From a marine gamma proteobacterium HTCC2148 (GTDB lineage: Bacteria; Pseudomonadota; Gammaproteobacteria; Pseudomonadales; Halieaceae), in the NCBI GenBank assembly GCA_000156295.1, contig DS999226.1, positions 210,781 through 274,780 of the forward strand: a DNA stretch of 64,000 nt. The letters run 5' to 3'. Position 1 is the first letter of the stretch. Each line of letters opens with the position of its first letter. The notes beneath the pieces are model-generated. The model was given only the letters and a program-made list of their open reading frames with translations. It was not told the origin of the DNA and did no database searches. Of this stretch, positions 35,332-43,713 are shown in pieces. The position numbers and the translations under genes were made by a program.

Positions 35332-35542
35332 GAATACTTTGCCACATACGGAGCCCTTGCCTCTGGTAAGGGCCCCAAAGCCCCGCTGATTTATCACCGC
35401 TAGTATCCCTCGCGAGCGGTTCCCCGACCTGAACCCCTGTAGTACCCTACTCGAAGAAACCGAGCCTTTGTTGATTTGGCTCAAGCACCAGACAGACACA
35501 ACGCACATACTTGTAGCCGGTAACGAACTGTTCAGGGGTTTC

Positions 35543-37801
35543 ATGCACAAGCAAAATCCGAAAGTCGCAGCGCGAGTCACCCAGGCAATGCGAACTCTGC
35601 CTCGCGACCATTTTATCGAAATGAGCAATCCCTCTTTGGTTTTGGGACGCAGTATCCCGCCAACCAATGCCGTCTCGGAAATTTTGAACCACGCCAACAT
35701 CCAGCCTGATCACAAAATGTTGCTGGTTGGCACGGGGGCCGGCTATGTGGCTGCCCTGGCCAGCAAACTTGCTGCCAAAGTTGTCGCACTGGAAATCAGT
35801 GACGCTATGGCACAGCAAGCGCAAAAAAGATTCAACGAACTAGAACTTGCCAATCTGATTCAACGGACCGCTGACGGTAGTGCTGGCGCACCGGAGTTAG
35901 GTCCTTATGATCGCATTTTTGTAGCCACCCCAAGAGTGACCGACAAAGCCCCGTTGATAGCCCAACTCACGGATGGGGGGCAGCTGTTGGCCATTGAACA
36001 AGGCGAGAACGAAACTCTGATCCTGACACGCTACGAGGTCAATGAACCGGGCGCCGCTTTGCGTAAAGAATTGGCCATGGTAGATTTTTCCCGCGATACC
36101 GGCCTGACCCTGCTGGACATGGGCATGGTTGACCAGGTGATGCTGGCCGAGGCGCGTCGAGTTGCACGAGCCAAACGACTACCTGTTATCAATGTACTCA
36201 GAGAAAAGCTCAATCTCGAAGACTCAGCACTTTATCGCCGTTTGGCTGAAGAGAACGCCATTCCTTTTGCAGCTATTGACGACTTGTTACCCCAGGTCCA
36301 ACCGGAACTAATGGAAGGCTTTTCGCGCAGCTTTCTGGACAGCAATCACCTCATCCCACTCAAGGTAAAAGATCGCACCTTGCAGGTGGTAACCGACGAC
36401 CCGGACAGCTCGGTGGACGACATCTACCACATGTACCCCTACGACCAGGTCAGTAAAACCCTGGTCACCCCCAATGATTTCAAACGGCTTTGGACCACCG
36501 TAGAACTTTCATTACAAGGCAATGCCCACCAGTTGTGGTCTGCCAAACCTGAACCAGAGGAAAAAAAAGACGACCTGTTGGACCGAGAAAAAACCCGGAT
36601 TGAAGCTCATCTTATTACCCTTTGTGACGCCTTGTTACTGGATGCGGTCAGCGAGGGAGCAAGCGACCTGCACATAGAACAATACAAAAACAGCACCCGC
36701 ATCAGACTGCGGGTAGACGGTGACCTACACGACCTCACTCATTATCGTTTATCGCCCCAGGAAGCCAAGGGTCTAATCAATGTCATCAAGATCCGGGGCG
36801 ACATGGATATCGCTGAAAAGCGTTTACCACAGGGGGGGCGCTCCCAATTGACCGCCGGCGGCGTCAGCTATGACTTGCGTATCCAGATACAGCCTTCCCT
36901 TCACGGCGAGGCGGCAGTTATTCGCATGCTGCCGCAGTCAGGCAATATCGTAGACATCGAAGACCTGGGCATGACGGCGCCACTGATGAAGAGTTACCGC
37001 CGCCTGCTACAAAACCCATCGGGTCTGGTGCTGGTGGTAGGCCCAACCGGGTCCGGCAAATCCACCACCTTGTATGCCGGACTGTCGGAGTTGGCCCGCG
37101 ACGGCCGCCGTAAAGTACTGACCATTGAAGACCCGATCGAATACTCTATCGATGGTATTCAACAAACTTTCACCCGCTCAGATATAGGGTTCAATTTCGC
37201 CGATGGCATGCGCTCTTTTGTGCGCCTGGACCCGGACGTCATTCTGGTAGGAGAAATTCGTGATACCGAAACTGCCGTGGAGGCGATCAGGGCTTCACAG
37301 ACCGGACACGTGGTGTTGTCCACCCTGCACGCCAATGATGCGGTCGATGCCCTGCAACGTATTTATGACCTGGAGGTGCACGCTAATTCTGTCGCCAGCG
37401 AATTGATGGCCGTTATCGCCCAGAAACTCGCCAAACGGGTTTGCACTGACTGCCGCCAGGACGCCGAGCCTGACCCGGTCATACTGGCCGAGCTGTTCCC
37501 GGAAGGCGTGCCGGCAAGCTTTCGCTGCTTTGAAGGTGCCGGCTGCGAAACGTGCGGTGGGCGAGGCACCAAAGGCCGAGTGGGTGTGGTCGAATATATG
37601 CAGGTCAATACCGAGATCCGCACCGGCATATCGTTGCGCTACCCGATTGCCCAATTGCGTTCCATTGCGCTGGATTCCGGGCTGATCACTATGCGCGATA
37701 GCGCGCTCAATCATGTGATCGAGGGGACGATTCCACTGTCTGAACTTCCCAGGGTATTGCCATCAGAGCGCATGGCCCCGGAGAAGCGAGGTGCCTGGTA
37801 A
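35543..37801 (+). CDS. Fusion of PCMT-like methyltransferase domain with PilB/GspE-type secretion ATPase
   Basis: A 752-aa fusion. Residues about 5-165 have the fold of protein-L-isoaspartate O-methyltransferase: RVTQAMRTLPRDHFIE, then SAM motif LLVGTGAGYVAAL (60-72) and acidic VALEIS; the usual catalytic GQTISQP loop reads GRSIPPTN, so activity is uncertain. Residues about 190-325 are an MshEN domain, and 355-745 a type II secretion/type IV pilus ATPase with Walker A GPTGSGKST (500-508), Walker B VILVGEIRD, the TGHVVLSTLHAND His box and a CxxC...CxxC zinc site (634/637, 668/671). ATG 35543 has AGGGG 6 nt upstream; a TTG at 35468 is the alternative. No pilus or secretion genes nearby. The next ORF starts right after its stop. 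Confidence 0.88.
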   Translation: MHKQNPKVAARVTQAMRTLPRDHFIEMSNPSLVLGRSIPPTNAVSEILNHANIQPDHKMLLVGTGAGYVAALASKLAAKVVALEISDAMAQQAQKRFNELELANLIQRTADGSAGAPELGPYDRIFVATPRVTDKAPLIAQLTDGGQLLAIEQGENETLILTRYEVNEPGAALRKELAMVDFSRDTGLTLLDMGMVDQVMLAEARRVARAKRLPVINVLREKLNLEDSALYRRLAEENAIPFAAIDDLLPQVQPELMEGFSRSFLDSNHLIPLKVKDRTLQVVTDDPDSSVDDIYHMYPYDQVSKTLVTPNDFKRLWTTVELSLQGNAHQLWSAKPEPEEKKDDLLDREKTRIEAHLITLCDALLLDAVSEGASDLHIEQYKNSTRIRLRVDGDLHDLTHYRLSPQEAKGLINVIKIRGDMDIAEKRLPQGGRSQLTAGGVSYDLRIQIQPSLHGEAAVIRMLPQSGNIVDIEDLGMTAPLMKSYRRLLQNPSGLVLVVGPTGSGKSTTLYAGLSELARDGRRKVLTIEDPIEYSIDGIQQTFTRSDIGFNFADGMRSFVRLDPDVILVGEIRDTETAVEAIRASQTGHVVLSTLHANDAVDALQRIYDLEVHANSVASELMAVIAQKLAKRVCTDCRQDAEPDPVILAELFPEGVPASFRCFEGAGCETCGGRGTKGRVGVVEYMQVNTEIRTGISLRYPIAQLRSIALDSGLITMRDSALNHVIEGTIPLSELPRVLPSERMAPEKRGAW

Positions 37802-39537: not shown

Positions 39538-39999
39538 TCAAATAGCTCCGCTGTTGCGAGCCAGATAACGGTCAAGGGCGTTCGCAAATGCCTGCTTATC
39601 TCGGGGGCCCAGCGCCGCAGGACCGCCGCCTATATCACCGCTCGAACGCATCGTATCCATAAAGTCCCGCATGTTCAGGCGGGGTTTAATATTGTCTGCT
39701 GTCAATTGCTCTCCCCTTGGTGATATCACCCCGGCGCCCTTTTCAATCACTTCCGCAGACAGTGGAATATCGGATGTGATCACCAGATCTCTTTCACTTA
39801 CCTGCGCCACAATATAGTCATCAGCGACATCAAAACCCTGAGGTACCTGGCGACAGCTAATCCAGGGTGAACTAGGGGCGGGGATAACATGGTTTGCGAC
39901 CAGAACCAGAGGCTGTTCCAGGCGATTGGCAGCACGATACAAAATTTCCCGGATGACCTTGGGGCACGCATCGGCGTCTACCCATACCGTTATGGCCAT
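39538..39999 (-). CDS. yaiI: UPF0178/YaiI protein
   Basis: A 153-aa DUF188/YaiI protein with the PIN-like start [19 protein letters not shown] and the conserved [13 protein letters not shown] and [11 protein letters not shown] segments. Length matches E. coli YaiI (152 aa). A nuclease function is suspected from the fold but unproven. Same strand as the acyltransferase 43 bp away; divergent from the kinase gene. Confidence 0.93.
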
Positions 40000-40150
40000 T
40001 AATTCTCTCCAGCGGCTTGATTACCATACCGTATCCGAAGCCATGGCATATTGCGATACTGGCTCTTTCCTATCTCCATCATGCGACAGCAAAACAGCCA
40101 AAGCACGACGCCTGCTATATACTCCAGCTTTCAATCAGGGAGGGATGCAA

Positions 40151-41356
40151 ATGAACGACGAGTTGTTTCGACACACCCAAACCGTCGATCGAAGCAGCGA
40201 TGACTCGGCAATTAACGGACGAACACCGACTGACCCAACTCAGAATGAAGTGGCACCGCAACAAGAAGGCGACGTCATCCTCGATCGCTTTGAGGTGAAA
40301 CGCTTCCTTGGCAGTGGTGCTTTCGGGTTTGTTTTTCTCGCTTATGACATGGACCTTGATCGTCTGGTCGCCATAAAAAAACCCTCCCAGAGAATGCTGT
40401 CCCAGCTGGGCAATATCGACCAACTCATCAGAGAAGCGCGCACTGTAGCCCAGCTCGATCATGAAAACATCGTTCCTGTCTACGATACCCTCAGCGCACC
40501 AGACGGTTCCTGCTACATCATTTCAAAGTTTGTTCGCGGCCAGGATCTGCGCTCATTGCTGCTGCAAGGCCGCCCAGGAATGCCTAAAATTGTCAAAACG
40601 ATAAAAGACGTTGCCTTCGCATTGCATCACGCCCACCTTAACGCGATTGTTCACTGCGACATCAAGCCAGCGAACATCATGCTCGATGACAATGGCAAGG
40701 CTCACGTTACCGACTTTGGCATTGCATTCAACCTGAAAGCCTGTCTGCAAGACACAGCATCAGACGGTACACCCGCTTATATGAGCCCGGAACAAACCCA
40801 GGAGCAGAATAAATCGCTGGACGGTCGTTCCGATGTTTACTCGCTGGGCATTGTGCTTTATGAGCTACTGTGCGGGCAGCTGCCGTTCTCTGGTGAAACT
40901 CGGACCGAGCTGGTCAACAACATACTTAGTGCCAATGCCAGACCACCTCGCCAAATAGACGATAGCATACCCAGGATTATTGAAACCATTTGCCTGAAGG
41001 CGATGGCTCGCGACCCCGCACAACGATACACAACAGCGCTGGATATGGCCCGTGATCTTGAACAATACGCCGGCTATGATCCCAAGCCCATTGATGTTTC
41101 GATGGTCGACGTACCGCCAGAACTCAATAAGCTCATTGAAGAGCTCTCCGAGAACACCCATGACATTTGGGCAGTTCAGCGGTACCAGGATGGCTGGAAG
41201 TTAGGAGACGTGCGCAACGACAGTCACAAGACTCACCCTTGCCTGATAGCTTATGAGCAACTTCCTGAATCAGAAAAGCAATATGATCGTGCCACCGTAT
41301 TAGGCACTATCAAGGGCATGCTGGCACTGGGCTACACTATTGAAAAGAAAAACTAG
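40151..41356 (+). CDS. Serine/threonine protein kinase with C-terminal RyR domain
   Basis: A 401-aa soluble kinase. After a 45-residue polar leader the kinase domain has the Gly loop GSGAFGFVF (54-62), Lys76 in VAIKKP, HCDIKPANIML (168-178; Cys replaces Arg of HRD, so a non-RD kinase), DFG 188-190 and MSPEQ. Residues about 322-398 (VPPELNKLIEELSENTHDIW, GWKLGD, KTHPCLIAYEQLPESEK, GYTI) are an RyR domain, a ligand-binding module named after ryanodine receptors. No transmembrane or PASTA segment. ATG 40151 has GGAGGG at correct spacing; the ATG two codons earlier is too close. Convergent, 23 bp, with the SLOG-like membrane protein. Confidence 0.88.
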   Translation: MNDELFRHTQTVDRSSDDSAINGRTPTDPTQNEVAPQQEGDVILDRFEVKRFLGSGAFGFVFLAYDMDLDRLVAIKKPSQRMLSQLGNIDQLIREARTVAQLDHENIVPVYDTLSAPDGSCYIISKFVRGQDLRSLLLQGRPGMPKIVKTIKDVAFALHHAHLNAIVHCDIKPANIMLDDNGKAHVTDFGIAFNLKACLQDTASDGTPAYMSPEQTQEQNKSLDGRSDVYSLGIVLYELLCGQLPFSGETRTELVNNILSANARPPRQIDDSIPRIIETICLKAMARDPAQRYTTALDMARDLEQYAGYDPKPIDVSMVDVPPELNKLIEELSENTHDIWAVQRYQDGWKLGDVRNDSHKTHPCLIAYEQLPESEKQYDRATVLGTIKGMLALGYTIEKKN

Positions 41357-41379
41357 CCGCTAGCGTATCAAAGCCATGT

Positions 41380-43089
41380 TTAGGCATGCAGGCCAGAGTG
41401 CTCCAGCGGTCGCTCACGATGAATCAATATCCATTCTGAATGCTCTTCCAGACAAGCCTCTCCCAAAGCTCGCAATACTTTTTCCTGCATAACCGGGTCC
41501 GATTTGGCGGCGAGCGATTGACGCTGTGCATTGCTGAACGTCTTGTGCATGAACTGATATTGCTTGGTCAACTCTTTATCAGCCTTCTTATACGCATAAG
41601 CTTGCCGAATGCCCGCGGTCAAAGGCAGAAGACCCATCAGGATGAACAGAATGTTGGTTGCGGTATCGTCAAGAATGGATCCAATCGCAAGCAGTAACAA
41701 GGCGATAAAAATGCCCACCCACAGAGTGAACGTGCCATAGAACTCATTCCGCTTCAGCTTTTTTTCCCTGTGCAGGGAGGCCGAATCGTAATACCCGAGC
41801 TGCCCTGTTTCCGCTTCTGCATCGCCAATCCAGTTATCAATGGCCAGCTCCAGGCCATTGCTGGCACGGTCTGGATTGACTCTTCCTGAGCCACCTACGC
41901 TCCTCATCACATGTCGAATCCAGACTAACTCCATATCCTGCTTTTGCATCATATTGTCATAGGTAAAAGCGGCTCCGTTGTAATCCTCAATGCCTGCCAG
42001 AGTCCAGTAAAATTGAACGCGCAGCCCTTCGGCCAGGGCTCGGTTATCGAGGTACTTCCGGTGCCATTGGAAATGGCCCGCCATTTTGTTAAGAAACAAG
42101 GCCACAAAAAAGAAAAAGAGAAAGGCTGGCAGCAGGATGGAAAACTCAACGTACTCCGAATAGATGATAAAACTGGCACCCATCAACACCGCCAAAACGT
42201 GAGTAAAGAAAAGCTCCCGCTCGACAAATCCTCGATATCGAATAGCCAGCCAGTCCGCGGTCTGGTGCGCGTTATCAATCTCCTTCAGATTAGGATCGGA
42301 ACGCATATCCCGATGTTCAATCAGACTAATACCAGAAGACTTTATCGCCGATTGATACTTAAGACCATCGAGACGGAAATCCTGCAGATGGAGAAATGGG
42401 GCTCGATACCTTTCCGGCATTTCGACACATTCAAACACGCTTTCGTTGCTAAGCCAGCGGCCACGGTCGCGAGTTTCTTCCTCGGCACGGGGGCAGTGAA
42501 TATGATAAATCAGGTCGCTTTCTTTATCCGCCAGCAAGTGGTCAACACCGTGTTCACCGGTAATCCCGCTCATTTCGTCATGTAACTGGAAGTTGACTAC
42601 ACTGCCTGTGCCACCCGGCTTATAAACATCTTTCCCATCCCAGAGTGCCAGTACAATGTGTGAGTGACTGGCGACATAGGTTCCAAGCTGGGCATACTGC
42701 AAGTTTCTGGCGTCTCCTTGTTCTCTTATCGATTCGAGGGAATTGCCCTGAGCGAGCGGTAATTCAAAGACTAAGGACTGTCGCAAAAGCGCCTGAAATA
42801 CTTCCAAGGAGTGGGGGTCTACAAAGTCTTCTTGGTACTCTGTCAGTGGCATAGGTAAGGGCACTTCCAGGGAGAGCCCCATGTTGATCGCTACCTGGGC
42901 AACCAGGGTATCGCCACCTGTTGCGAGCGGATTGACAACAACCAGCGGCAAATCCGGAAACATGTGCTGCAAACTGGCAAAGAACTCGCGAGTTTGTCGG
43001 GTGATGCTTTCTTCATCAGCGTGGCTTAAGTCGCGATGCGCCGTTACTCCGATTTTCAGACAAATATTGCCATCTCTAAGACTTGTCAA
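41380..43089 (-). CDS. Membrane protein with N-terminal SLOG-like Rossmann domain and four TM helices
   Basis: A 569-aa protein. Residues about 8-160 have a Rossmann-like SLOG pattern: CLKIGVTAHRDLSH, a strand plus PLATGGDTLVAQVA (52-67), LEVPLPMPLTEYQEDF (phosphate-handling style loop), and HSHIVLALWDG. Two membrane hairpins follow, at about 294-333 and 452-494, each flanked by long helices, resembling the SLATT-type two-TM modules associated with SLOG and nucleotidyltransferase systems. TTG start at 43087-43089 with AGGGA 8 nt upstream; no ATG fits. It should sense a nucleotide-like ligand and act at the inner membrane. Assignment to SLOG/SLATT is by motif, not by search. Confidence 0.72.
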   Translation of the reverse strand: MTSLRDGNICLKIGVTAHRDLSHADEESITRQTREFFASLQHMFPDLPLVVVNPLATGGDTLVAQVAINMGLSLEVPLPMPLTEYQEDFVDPHSLEVFQALLRQSLVFELPLAQGNSLESIREQGDARNLQYAQLGTYVASHSHIVLALWDGKDVYKPGGTGSVVNFQLHDEMSGITGEHGVDHLLADKESDLIYHIHCPRAEEETRDRGRWLSNESVFECVEMPERYRAPFLHLQDFRLDGLKYQSAIKSSGISLIEHRDMRSDPNLKEIDNAHQTADWLAIRYRGFVERELFFTHVLAVLMGASFIIYSEYVEFSILLPAFLFFFFVALFLNKMAGHFQWHRKYLDNRALAEGLRVQFYWTLAGIEDYNGAAFTYDNMMQKQDMELVWIRHVMRSVGGSGRVNPDRASNGLELAIDNWIGDAEAETGQLGYYDSASLHREKKLKRNEFYGTFTLWVGIFIALLLLAIGSILDDTATNILFILMGLLPLTAGIRQAYAYKKADKELTKQYQFMHKTFSNAQRQSLAAKSDPVMQEKVLRALGEACLEEHSEWILIHRERPLEHSGLHA

Positions 43090-43296: not shown

Positions 43297-43713
43297 ATGG
43301 CAGGTAAAGCAGTGATAGAACAACTGGACATCAGAATCTCAGGACAGGGACTACACCCCTTCACCCCCGTCGTGAGCGAGCTGGTCAAAAGCAGCGGCCT
43401 CGATGAAGGTCTGTGCTCACTTTTTATCCGCCACACCTCTGCCAGCCTGTTAATTCAGGAAAACTATGATGATAGCGCCAGAGTCGACCTGGAAAACTGG
43501 CTCAACAGGCTAGTGCCGGAAAACGATTCGCTTTACACCCACACTCTGGAAGGCGCAGATGATATGCCAGCACATATTAAATCAGCCCTCACTGCGAGTC
43601 AGTTGGCTATCCCCTTTCAGCGGGGGCAACTGATGTTAGGCACATGGCAGGGTATTTATCTTTGGGAGCACCGGCATTACACCGGTGAGCGACAGGTCGT
43701 AGTGCACCTGTGA
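43297..43713 (+). CDS. yjbQ: YjbQ/UPF0047 family protein
   Basis: A 138-aa UPF0047 protein with the conserved LFIRHTSASLLIQENYDD, EGADDMPAHIKSAL and GTWQGIYLWEHR segments. E. coli YjbQ has weak thiamine-phosphate-synthase activity; its true substrate is unknown. The ATG at 43297 lacks a clear ribosome site; GTG 43312, with AGGT before it, is an alternative start. Its stop overlaps the glcD GTG (GTGA), so it leads the glycolate oxidase operon. Confidence 0.9.
   Translation: MAGKAVIEQLDIRISGQGLHPFTPVVSELVKSSGLDEGLCSLFIRHTSASLLIQENYDDSARVDLENWLNRLVPENDSLYTHTLEGADDMPAHIKSALTASQLAIPFQRGQLMLGTWQGIYLWEHRHYTGERQVVVHL

What the first reader, a model, noticed from the sequence alone, without database searches (positions are those of the whole stretch)
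40151..43089. Convergent pair: RyR-domain Ser/Thr kinase and SLOG-like four-TM protein
Seen: a non-RD kinase (HCD instead of HRD) whose C-terminal 75 residues fit the RyR domain, 23 bp from a membrane protein with a Rossmann-like N-terminus (GVTAHRD, PLATGGD) and two TM hairpins. Known: RyR, SLOG and SLATT-type modules recur together in predicted nucleotide-centred conflict and signalling systems, and RyR and SLOG-like (TRPM LSDAT) domains also sit on animal ion channels. Inference: the SLOG part senses a nucleotide derivative, the TM part makes a pore or signal, and the kinase reads a ligand via RyR and may phosphorylate its neighbour. I know of no described system with this exact pair.
Basis: partly seen in the sequence, partly recalled or inferred. 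Interest (0 to 1): 0.82.

Follow-up and report, generated by a model that had tools for sequence, protein, structure and literature searches.

The report
Likely receptor pair for NAD-derived signals
Two neighbouring genes in a bacterium look like two receivers of an alarm molecule made from NAD, one a membrane protein and the other a protein kinase that carries the ligand-binding domain known from animal ryanodine receptors; related sensor pairs recur in other bacteria, but no function has been tested.

Summary
A non-RD Ser/Thr kinase with a C-terminal RyR domain (110.7 bits) lies 23 bp from a convergent gene for a SLOG-SLATT_3-SLATT_1 membrane protein. The four ligand residues of RyDEP, a phage RyR enzyme that cleaves cADPR isomers, are conserved in register. 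Of 80 related SLOG-SLATT loci, 49 have a TIR gene within 2 kb, so this protein is most likely the membrane effector of a Thoeris-like TIR system. The exact kinase+SLOG pair is not conserved: 0 of 80 loci show RyR or this kinase type, and both sister genomes hold the two genes unlinked. But RyR and SLOG recur together: of 24 RyR loci, 7 (this one included) have SLOG fused or near, and 5 have TIR near. Here the pair is the only cargo at a junction that is empty in five relatives. I read it as two receivers of one NAD-derived signal, with a kinase in place of the TrkA_N-type RyR protein usual elsewhere. Function is unproven.

The parts
40137..40144 (+). ribosome-binding-site-like AGGGAGGG before the kinase ATG
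   Evidence: read from the sequence
40151..41356 (+). non-RD Ser/Thr kinase with C-terminal RyR domain (P0001, 401 aa)
40289..41035 (+). protein kinase domain, residues 47-295
   Evidence: PF00069 3.3e-48
41075..41347 (+). RyR domain, residues 309-399; H337, W340, H362, D379 match RyDEP H75, W78, H100, D117
   Evidence: PF02026 110.7 bits; alignment with RyDEP gp78
41380..43089 (-). SLOG-SLATT_3-SLATT_1 membrane protein (P0002, 569 aa)
42565..43059 (-). SLOG-like N-terminal part, about residues 11-175 (limits approximate)
   Evidence: conserved blocks; weak DprA and YAcAr matches in relatives; hhalign to the SLOG part of P0003, probability 86
41977..42276 (-). first TM hairpin with following helix, about residues 272-371
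   Evidence: NCBIfam SLATT_1 sub-cutoff at 272-367, DUF4231 sub-cutoff at 280-371; SLATT_3 there in relatives
41434..41808 (-). second TM hairpin with following helix, about residues 428-552 (limits transferred by eye from relatives)
   Evidence: Pfam SLATT_1 on this part in L167, L174, L207
39538..39999 (-). left edge of the conserved junction (a DUF188/YaiI-like gene; name recalled, not scanned)
   Evidence: next to the 43297 gene in G001, G004, G005, G006, G007
43297..43713 (+). right edge of the conserved junction (an UPF0047/YjbQ-like gene; name recalled, not scanned)

Best explanation
The two genes encode two receivers of one class of NAD-derived nucleotide (cyclic ADP-ribose isomers or a relative) made by a TIR enzyme. 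The SLOG-SLATT protein binds the signal with SLOG, and its two TM hairpins then perturb the membrane, as a Thoeris-like abortive effector. The RyR domain binds the same class of signal, probably as a dimer, and switches the attached non-RD kinase, which tunes the response: it buffers the signal, or phosphorylates the effector or host targets. Shown here: the domains, conservation of the ligand residues, TIR linkage of the SLOG-SLATT family, recurrent linkage or fusion of RyR with SLOG(-SLATT), and the two-gene insert. Inferred: the ligand, the pore, kinase switching, phage defence, and that an unlinked TIR supplies the signal in this genome.
For: TIR within 2 kb in 49 of 80 SLOG-SLATT relatives, and in 35 of the 47 with both flanks of 3.5 kb or more; the TIR glutamate column is invariant in 56 of 56 linked TIRs. 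SLOG fused or near in 7 of 24 RyR loci, TIR within 2.2 kb in 5 of 24. RyDEP ligand residues conserved. The pair is the only cargo of a 3.3 kb insert at a junction that is 83-116 bp long in five relatives, and both genes diverge in parallel. Own genome: one TIR-TPR protein.
Against: No TIR is linked in the window; the genome's one TIR_2 match lies 107 kb away and there is no ThsB_TIR match. 0 of 80 SLOG-SLATT loci show RyR or a P0001-like kinase (the kinase model found kinases in 11 of 18 control loci). In G001 and G007 the two genes are unlinked. 14 of 24 RyR loci show neither SLOG nor TIR nearby. Co-occurrence may be one event, as the three carriers form a clade. SLOG rests on motifs and weak matches. 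No ligand or activity data.
Confidence: 0.5

Rival explanations
1. The two genes are independent defence-like genes that share an insertion site. The SLOG-SLATT protein belongs to a split TIR system; the RyR kinase acts alone, like single-kinase defence proteins, on its own trigger.
For: 0 of 80 SLOG-SLATT loci carry RyR or this kinase type. The genes are unlinked in G001 and G007. Best PADLOC matches of the kinase domain are PD-T4-6 kinases (2.4e-72, residues 38-307).
Against: RyR and SLOG(-SLATT) are linked or fused in 6 other RyR loci. Both genes are present in the same 3 of 140 family genomes that have the RyR kinase, and they diverge in parallel.
Confidence: 0.3
2. The RyR domain is a sponge or hydrolase that limits the signal, and the kinase is its regulator, so the kinase gene is the off-switch (immunity) of the SLOG-SLATT effector.
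For: The catalytic pair of RyDEP (H75, D117) is conserved. The preprint reports cleavage by RyDEP and tight binding without cleavage by homologues (PMC13232231).
Against: The same four residues occur in animal RyR and in non-cleaving homologues according to that preprint, so conservation does not show hydrolysis. SLOG-SLATT relatives in 80 of 80 loci do without a nearby RyR.
Confidence: 0.12
3. A housekeeping or stress-signalling pair (osmotic or metabolic) with no role in conflict with phages.
For: Both genes are chromosomal, with housekeeping-like neighbours, and no phage assay exists.
Against: Patchy presence (RyR kinase in 3 of 140 and P0002 relatives in 5 of 140 family genomes), the clean insert, and relatives beside TIR, patatin, SIR2-TIR and Cas_NE0113 genes.
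Confidence: 0.08

Closest known systems
Thoeris (ThsB TIR with ThsA SIR2-SLOG, or with TM-macro ThsA)
   Same: A TIR enzyme linked to a nucleotide-sensing effector in most well-flanked SLOG-SLATT relatives; SLOG as the presumed sensor; a membrane effector as in TM-macro ThsA (PMC11204291, passages seen).
   Different: The effector here is SLOG-SLATT_3-SLATT_1, with neither SIR2 nor macro domain matched; a small beta-rich protein often accompanies it (36 of 80 loci); in the window no TIR is linked and a RyR kinase is added.
Phage RyDEP and other PF02026 proteins (PMC13232231, a preprint; parts 1 and 2 of 6 read)
   Same: The RyR domain and its four ligand residues.
   Different: Phage anti-defence proteins, single-domain in the case aligned; here the domain sits on a bacterial protein kinase.
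TrkA_N-RyR membrane proteins of other Pseudomonadota
   Same: RyR domain near SLOG-SLATT or TIR genes in several loci.
   Different: TrkA_N-type body instead of a kinase.
SLATT effectors predicted by Burroughs et al. 2015 (paper not held; restated in passages of PMC9503650 and PMC7159879)
   Different: The RyR kinase was not mentioned in the passages that I saw.
PD-T4-6 and MAD6 defence kinases
   Same: Kinase domain similarity.
   Different: The matches cover the kinase domain only; the RyR part is unmatched.

Membership tests
RyR domain (PF02026) | match over the curated cut-off across the domain | tested here: met
   110.7 bits, cut-off 27.4, profile 1-91; phmmer to the solved RyR-like protein 3nrt E 2.8e-30
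RyR domain (PF02026) | binds adenine or cADPR-type ligands | not testable with these tools
   ligand residues conserved; no binding data
protein kinase | kinase fold with catalytic Asp and DFG | tested here: met
   PF00069 3.3e-48; HCD and DFG read from the sequence
SLATT | match over the curated cut-off | tested here: inconclusive
   the window protein is below cut-off; 45 of 51 relatives match SLATT_1 at E <= 0.01; the distant L089 is over the Pfam cut-off (40.3 against 26.3 bits)
SLOG | SLOG Rossmann-like fold | tested here: inconclusive
   DprA 2 of 51 and YAcAr 1 of 51; no PDB match to the profile at E <= 1; structure prediction unavailable
Thoeris | TIR (ThsB) gene in the same locus | tested here: not met
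   no TIR found in the window with my model; one TIR_2 match in the genome, 107 kb away; met in 49 of 80 relatives
Thoeris | effector of a described type (SIR2-SLOG or TM-macro) | tested here: not met
   no SIR2 or macro match in the Pfam scan of P0002
Thoeris | signal made from NAD activates the effector | not testable with these tools
   none
PD-T4-6 kinase | match over the whole protein | tested here: not met
   best match ends at residue 307 of 401

The most novel reading that the evidence does not exclude
RyR and SLOG-SLATT form a recurrent two-receptor module for TIR-made cADPR isomers in bacteria, and this genome carries a variant in which the RyR receptor is a protein kinase: a cADPR-gated Ser/Thr kinase that couples an NAD-derived immune signal to phosphorylation.
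Probability: 0.33. Interest if true: 0.88.

Novelty: new variant of a known kind. Interest (0 to 1): 0.7.

Why it matters
If RyR domains of bacterial hosts read TIR-made cADPR isomers, then animal ryanodine receptors would share their sensor part with a bacterial immune network, and the old question of whether and how cADPR acts on RyR would gain small, soluble bacterial models. A signal-gated kinase would add phosphorylation as an output of TIR signalling in bacteria. The TIR plus SLOG-SLATT linkage, often with a small beta-rich protein, also looks like a widespread Thoeris-like system worth testing in its own right.

Tried and rejected
Rejected: that the kinase+SLOG pair is itself a conserved operon (0 of 80 loci with RyR or P0001-like kinase). 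Rejected: that co-occurrence in the genus proves coupling. Of 8 genus genomes 3 have both and 5 have neither the RyR kinase nor the SLOG-SLATT gene, but G000, G001 and G007 form a clade (0.997) in a tree of three proteins and seven genomes, without G003 and G005, so one event may explain it. Corrected: from crude gene lists I noted that the kinase sits at different places in G001 and G007; a translated comparison showed one shared flank, so I dropped the claim. The notebook entry still carries the wrong version.

Tried without result: the first genome-contig scan with P0002 alone; a PDB sequence search with the family profile; a comparison with a phage DprA-like protein. The viral-contig scan with P0001 gave 7 kinase matches, none reaching past residue 311 into the main part of the RyR domain; the scan with the SLOG-SLATT alignment gave 3, not studied further. 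The ORF after the own-genome TIR-TPR gene (L063:7547-7978) was not found by the small-beta-protein model at E <= 1, nor was that next to one TIR gene of G007 (L068:3403-3852). No patatin ORF was found between RyR and SLOG-SLATT in G575, unlike G530. Promoter- and terminator-like sites did not exceed shuffles. No tRNA in the window.
Full report
WHAT IS THERE. The window is bases 210781-274780 of contig C27 of a 4.33 Mb genome. At 40151-41356 (+) lies a 401-residue protein with a protein kinase domain (residues 47-295, 3.3e-48) and a C-terminal RyR domain (residues 309-399, 4.3e-32). At 41380-43089 (-) lies a 569-residue membrane protein. The genes converge, with 23 bp between the stop codons. 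The kinase is non-RD (HCD) with DFG in place.

THE MEMBRANE PROTEIN. Its own profile matches are weak (DUF4231 E 0.039; SLATT_1 E 7e-4, below cut-off). In a 51-member alignment NCBIfam SLATT_1 matches 45 of 51 and SLATT_3 37 of 51; Pfam DUF4231 matches 38, SLATT_1 16, SLATT_3 14, DprA 2 and YAcAr (cpYpsA-related SLOG) 1 of 51. Single members show SLATT_3 or DUF4231 on hairpin 1 and SLATT_1 on hairpin 2. I therefore read the layout as SLOG-SLATT_3-SLATT_1. The SLOG part rests on conserved motifs and few weak hits; the family profile has no PDB match at E <= 1, and structure prediction was busy and then switched off.

ITS USUAL PARTNERS. A scan of one-genome-per-species contigs gave 355 relatives; the best 80 were kept. 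With models built here, a TIR ORF lies anywhere in the fetched flank in 52 of 80, within 1 kb in 47 and within 2 kb in 49; where both flanks reach 3.5 kb, within 2 kb in 35 of 47. By distance, 48 TIRs fall in the first kb (146 flank-kilobases available) and 8 in all further bins. The TIR glutamate column is invariant in 56 of 56; that it is the NADase glutamate is recalled. Two partners from the window's taxonomic family, scanned with Pfam, are TIR+TPR (735 and 740 aa; the second is linked to RyR, not to SLOG-SLATT). A small beta-rich protein (fold judged by eye), often with a DPxIxN-type tail, is found in 36 of 80 loci, 31 of which also have TIR. Of the 10 loci with long flanks and no TIR, four have an 'ISSPGDV' ORF upstream; the one scanned (L169) has nSTAND1, TPRs and a sub-cutoff DUF4062. 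In the window's own family, G445 has SLOG-SLATT, the small protein and TIR-TPR side by side, and in G027 a TIR lies about 10 kb from the SLOG-SLATT gene; in G001 and G007 none was found in the stretches fetched around the SLOG-SLATT gene. More distant SLOG or SLOG-SLATT relatives lie beside TIR and WD40 (Caballeronia plasmid), Cas_NE0113, a weakly WD40-like protein and TIR (G045), TIR and caspase (Agrobacterium plasmid), or patatin-like ORFs (G409, G270, G123; by eye).

THE RyR DOMAIN. A 2026 preprint (PMC13232231; [quoted passage not shown] I aligned its gene product (gp78): these residues fall on H337, W340, H362 and D379 of the window kinase. The four positions are kept in 10 of 11 RyR domains that I compared; the exception, G521, lacks the second His. 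Nothing here shows binding.

RyR AND SLOG RECUR TOGETHER. I examined 24 RyR loci: 2 besides the own genome among 274 class genomes, 15 among 140 family genomes, own included, and 7 besides the own among 398 phylum genomes. SLOG or SLOG-SLATT is fused or near in 7 of 24: fusions in G283 and G634; neighbours in G521 (52 bp), G778 (315 bp, divergent), G530 and G575 (about 1.3 kb; a patatin gene lies between in G530, none was found in G575); and the window. The fusion of G283 also scores against the family profile (hhalign probability 86, E 5e-6). TIR lies within 2.2 kb in 5 of 24: G017, G019, G283, G634 and, as a fragment, G025. The union is 10 of 24. Of the other 14, two are the sister kinases G001 and G007; G029, G448, G445 and G585 are cut short by contig ends; in G585 my model found no RyR ORF; G446 has only a SLOG signal of E 0.004, not counted; G131 has a TIR 3.3 kb away, not counted. 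A naive chance estimate for four SLOG-SLATT neighbours among 21 loci is about 2e-12; it ignores that defence genes cluster. Of nine non-kinase RyR proteins scanned with Pfam, six carry TrkA_N (one below cut-off) and three (G131, G530, G634) show RyR alone. Separately, of six plasmid records with RyR I opened three: a Priestia one has a cyclase, a Pycsar effector and, 1.4 kb away, TIR; one has a SIR2-family gene three genes away; the third shows none of these.

THE EXACT PAIR. RyR or a P0001-like kinase: 0 of 80 SLOG-SLATT loci; the kinase model found kinases in 11 of 18 control loci, so its sensitivity is limited. In 140 family genomes a RyR kinase occurs in 3 (G000, G001, G007) and a P0002 relative in 5 (those plus G027 and G445). 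In G001 the two genes are 485 kb apart, in G007 on different contigs. A tree of three core proteins groups G000 with (G001, G007) at 0.997, so shared presence may be one event. The junction between the genes at 39538-39999 and 43297-43713 is 83-116 bp in G001, G004, G005, G006 and G007 and holds one other gene in G002; G003 was not examined, and in G445 the right-hand gene was not found in the stretch fetched. So the kinase and the SLOG-SLATT gene are the only cargo of a 3.3 kb insert, 51 and 50% G+C against 54% for the window. Identities to G001 and G007 are 63.6 and 61.8% (kinase) and 57.7 and 56.8% (SLOG-SLATT), against 87.0 and 84.3% between those two. The genes diverge in parallel and more than core genes do, which fits joint acquisition but does not prove it.

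WHERE THE SIGNAL WOULD COME FROM. The own genome has one TIR_2 match, in a 723-aa TIR-TPR protein 107 kb from the kinase, and no ThsB_TIR match. By sequence it does not resemble the TIR type of G445. G001 and G007 have three and two TIR_2 matches; the small protein next to one TIR gene in each is recovered by the model (L065, L067, E 3e-5 to 5e-5). TIR_2 matches are absent from G002-G005 and present in G006. A split system is possible in these genomes but is not shown.

MECHANISM AND VERDICT. Best reading (0.5): two receivers of one class of TIR-made NAD product, a SLOG-gated membrane effector and a RyR-gated kinase. It works like Thoeris but is not filed as Thoeris, because no TIR is linked in the window and the effector type differs. 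Literature: in the listings over the held open-access library I saw no paper that pairs RyR with SLATT, SLOG or a kinase in bacteria; listings are capped, and PMC9025141, PMC5468394 and PMC13288928, which mention RyR domains, were not opened. Burroughs et al. 2015 is not held, so a prediction there cannot be excluded. PMC13373217 (CapK/CapS, a kinase that controls immune operons) was seen only in search listings. A TIR gene with transmembrane genes in phage AC1 protects E. coli (PMC9122126, passages).

Noticed in passing
L065:7709-8071, L067:3617-4006, L109:4292-4660 and ORFs in 36 of the loci L130-L209: A small beta-rich protein family, often ending in a DPxIxN-type tail, sits beside TIR-TPR genes and usually between TIR and SLOG-SLATT; the one scanned (L109) has no Pfam match. 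A possible third component.
   Followed up: partly
L014:8193-10667 (P0003) and L229:6766-8970: RyR and SLOG parts fused in one polypeptide (TrkA_N also matched in the first), with TIR genes 0.2 and 2.2 kb away.
   Followed up: partly
L110:6902-12035: A tight same-strand run TrkA_N-RyR, TIR-TPR, patatin.
   Followed up: no
L115:110-10226 and L088:1873-10272: SLOG-SLATT-like genes near a large NTPase-like gene and a SIR2-like gene; in L115 the latter is SIR2_2 plus TIR_2, and a TrkA_N-RyR gene lies next to the SLOG-SLATT gene.
   Followed up: no
L060:3653-11862: Priestia plasmid with Pycsar effector, two hypothetical genes, cyclase, stand-alone RyR protein and, on the other strand, a TIR gene.
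   Followed up: no
L012:7897-14301: Cas_NE0113 protein, SLOG-SLATT, weakly WD40-like protein and TIR in a row.
   Followed up: no
window 35468-37801: A 777-residue ORF that looks like a methyltransferase-type N-terminus fused to a GspE/PilB-type ATPase (by eye; not scanned).
   Followed up: no
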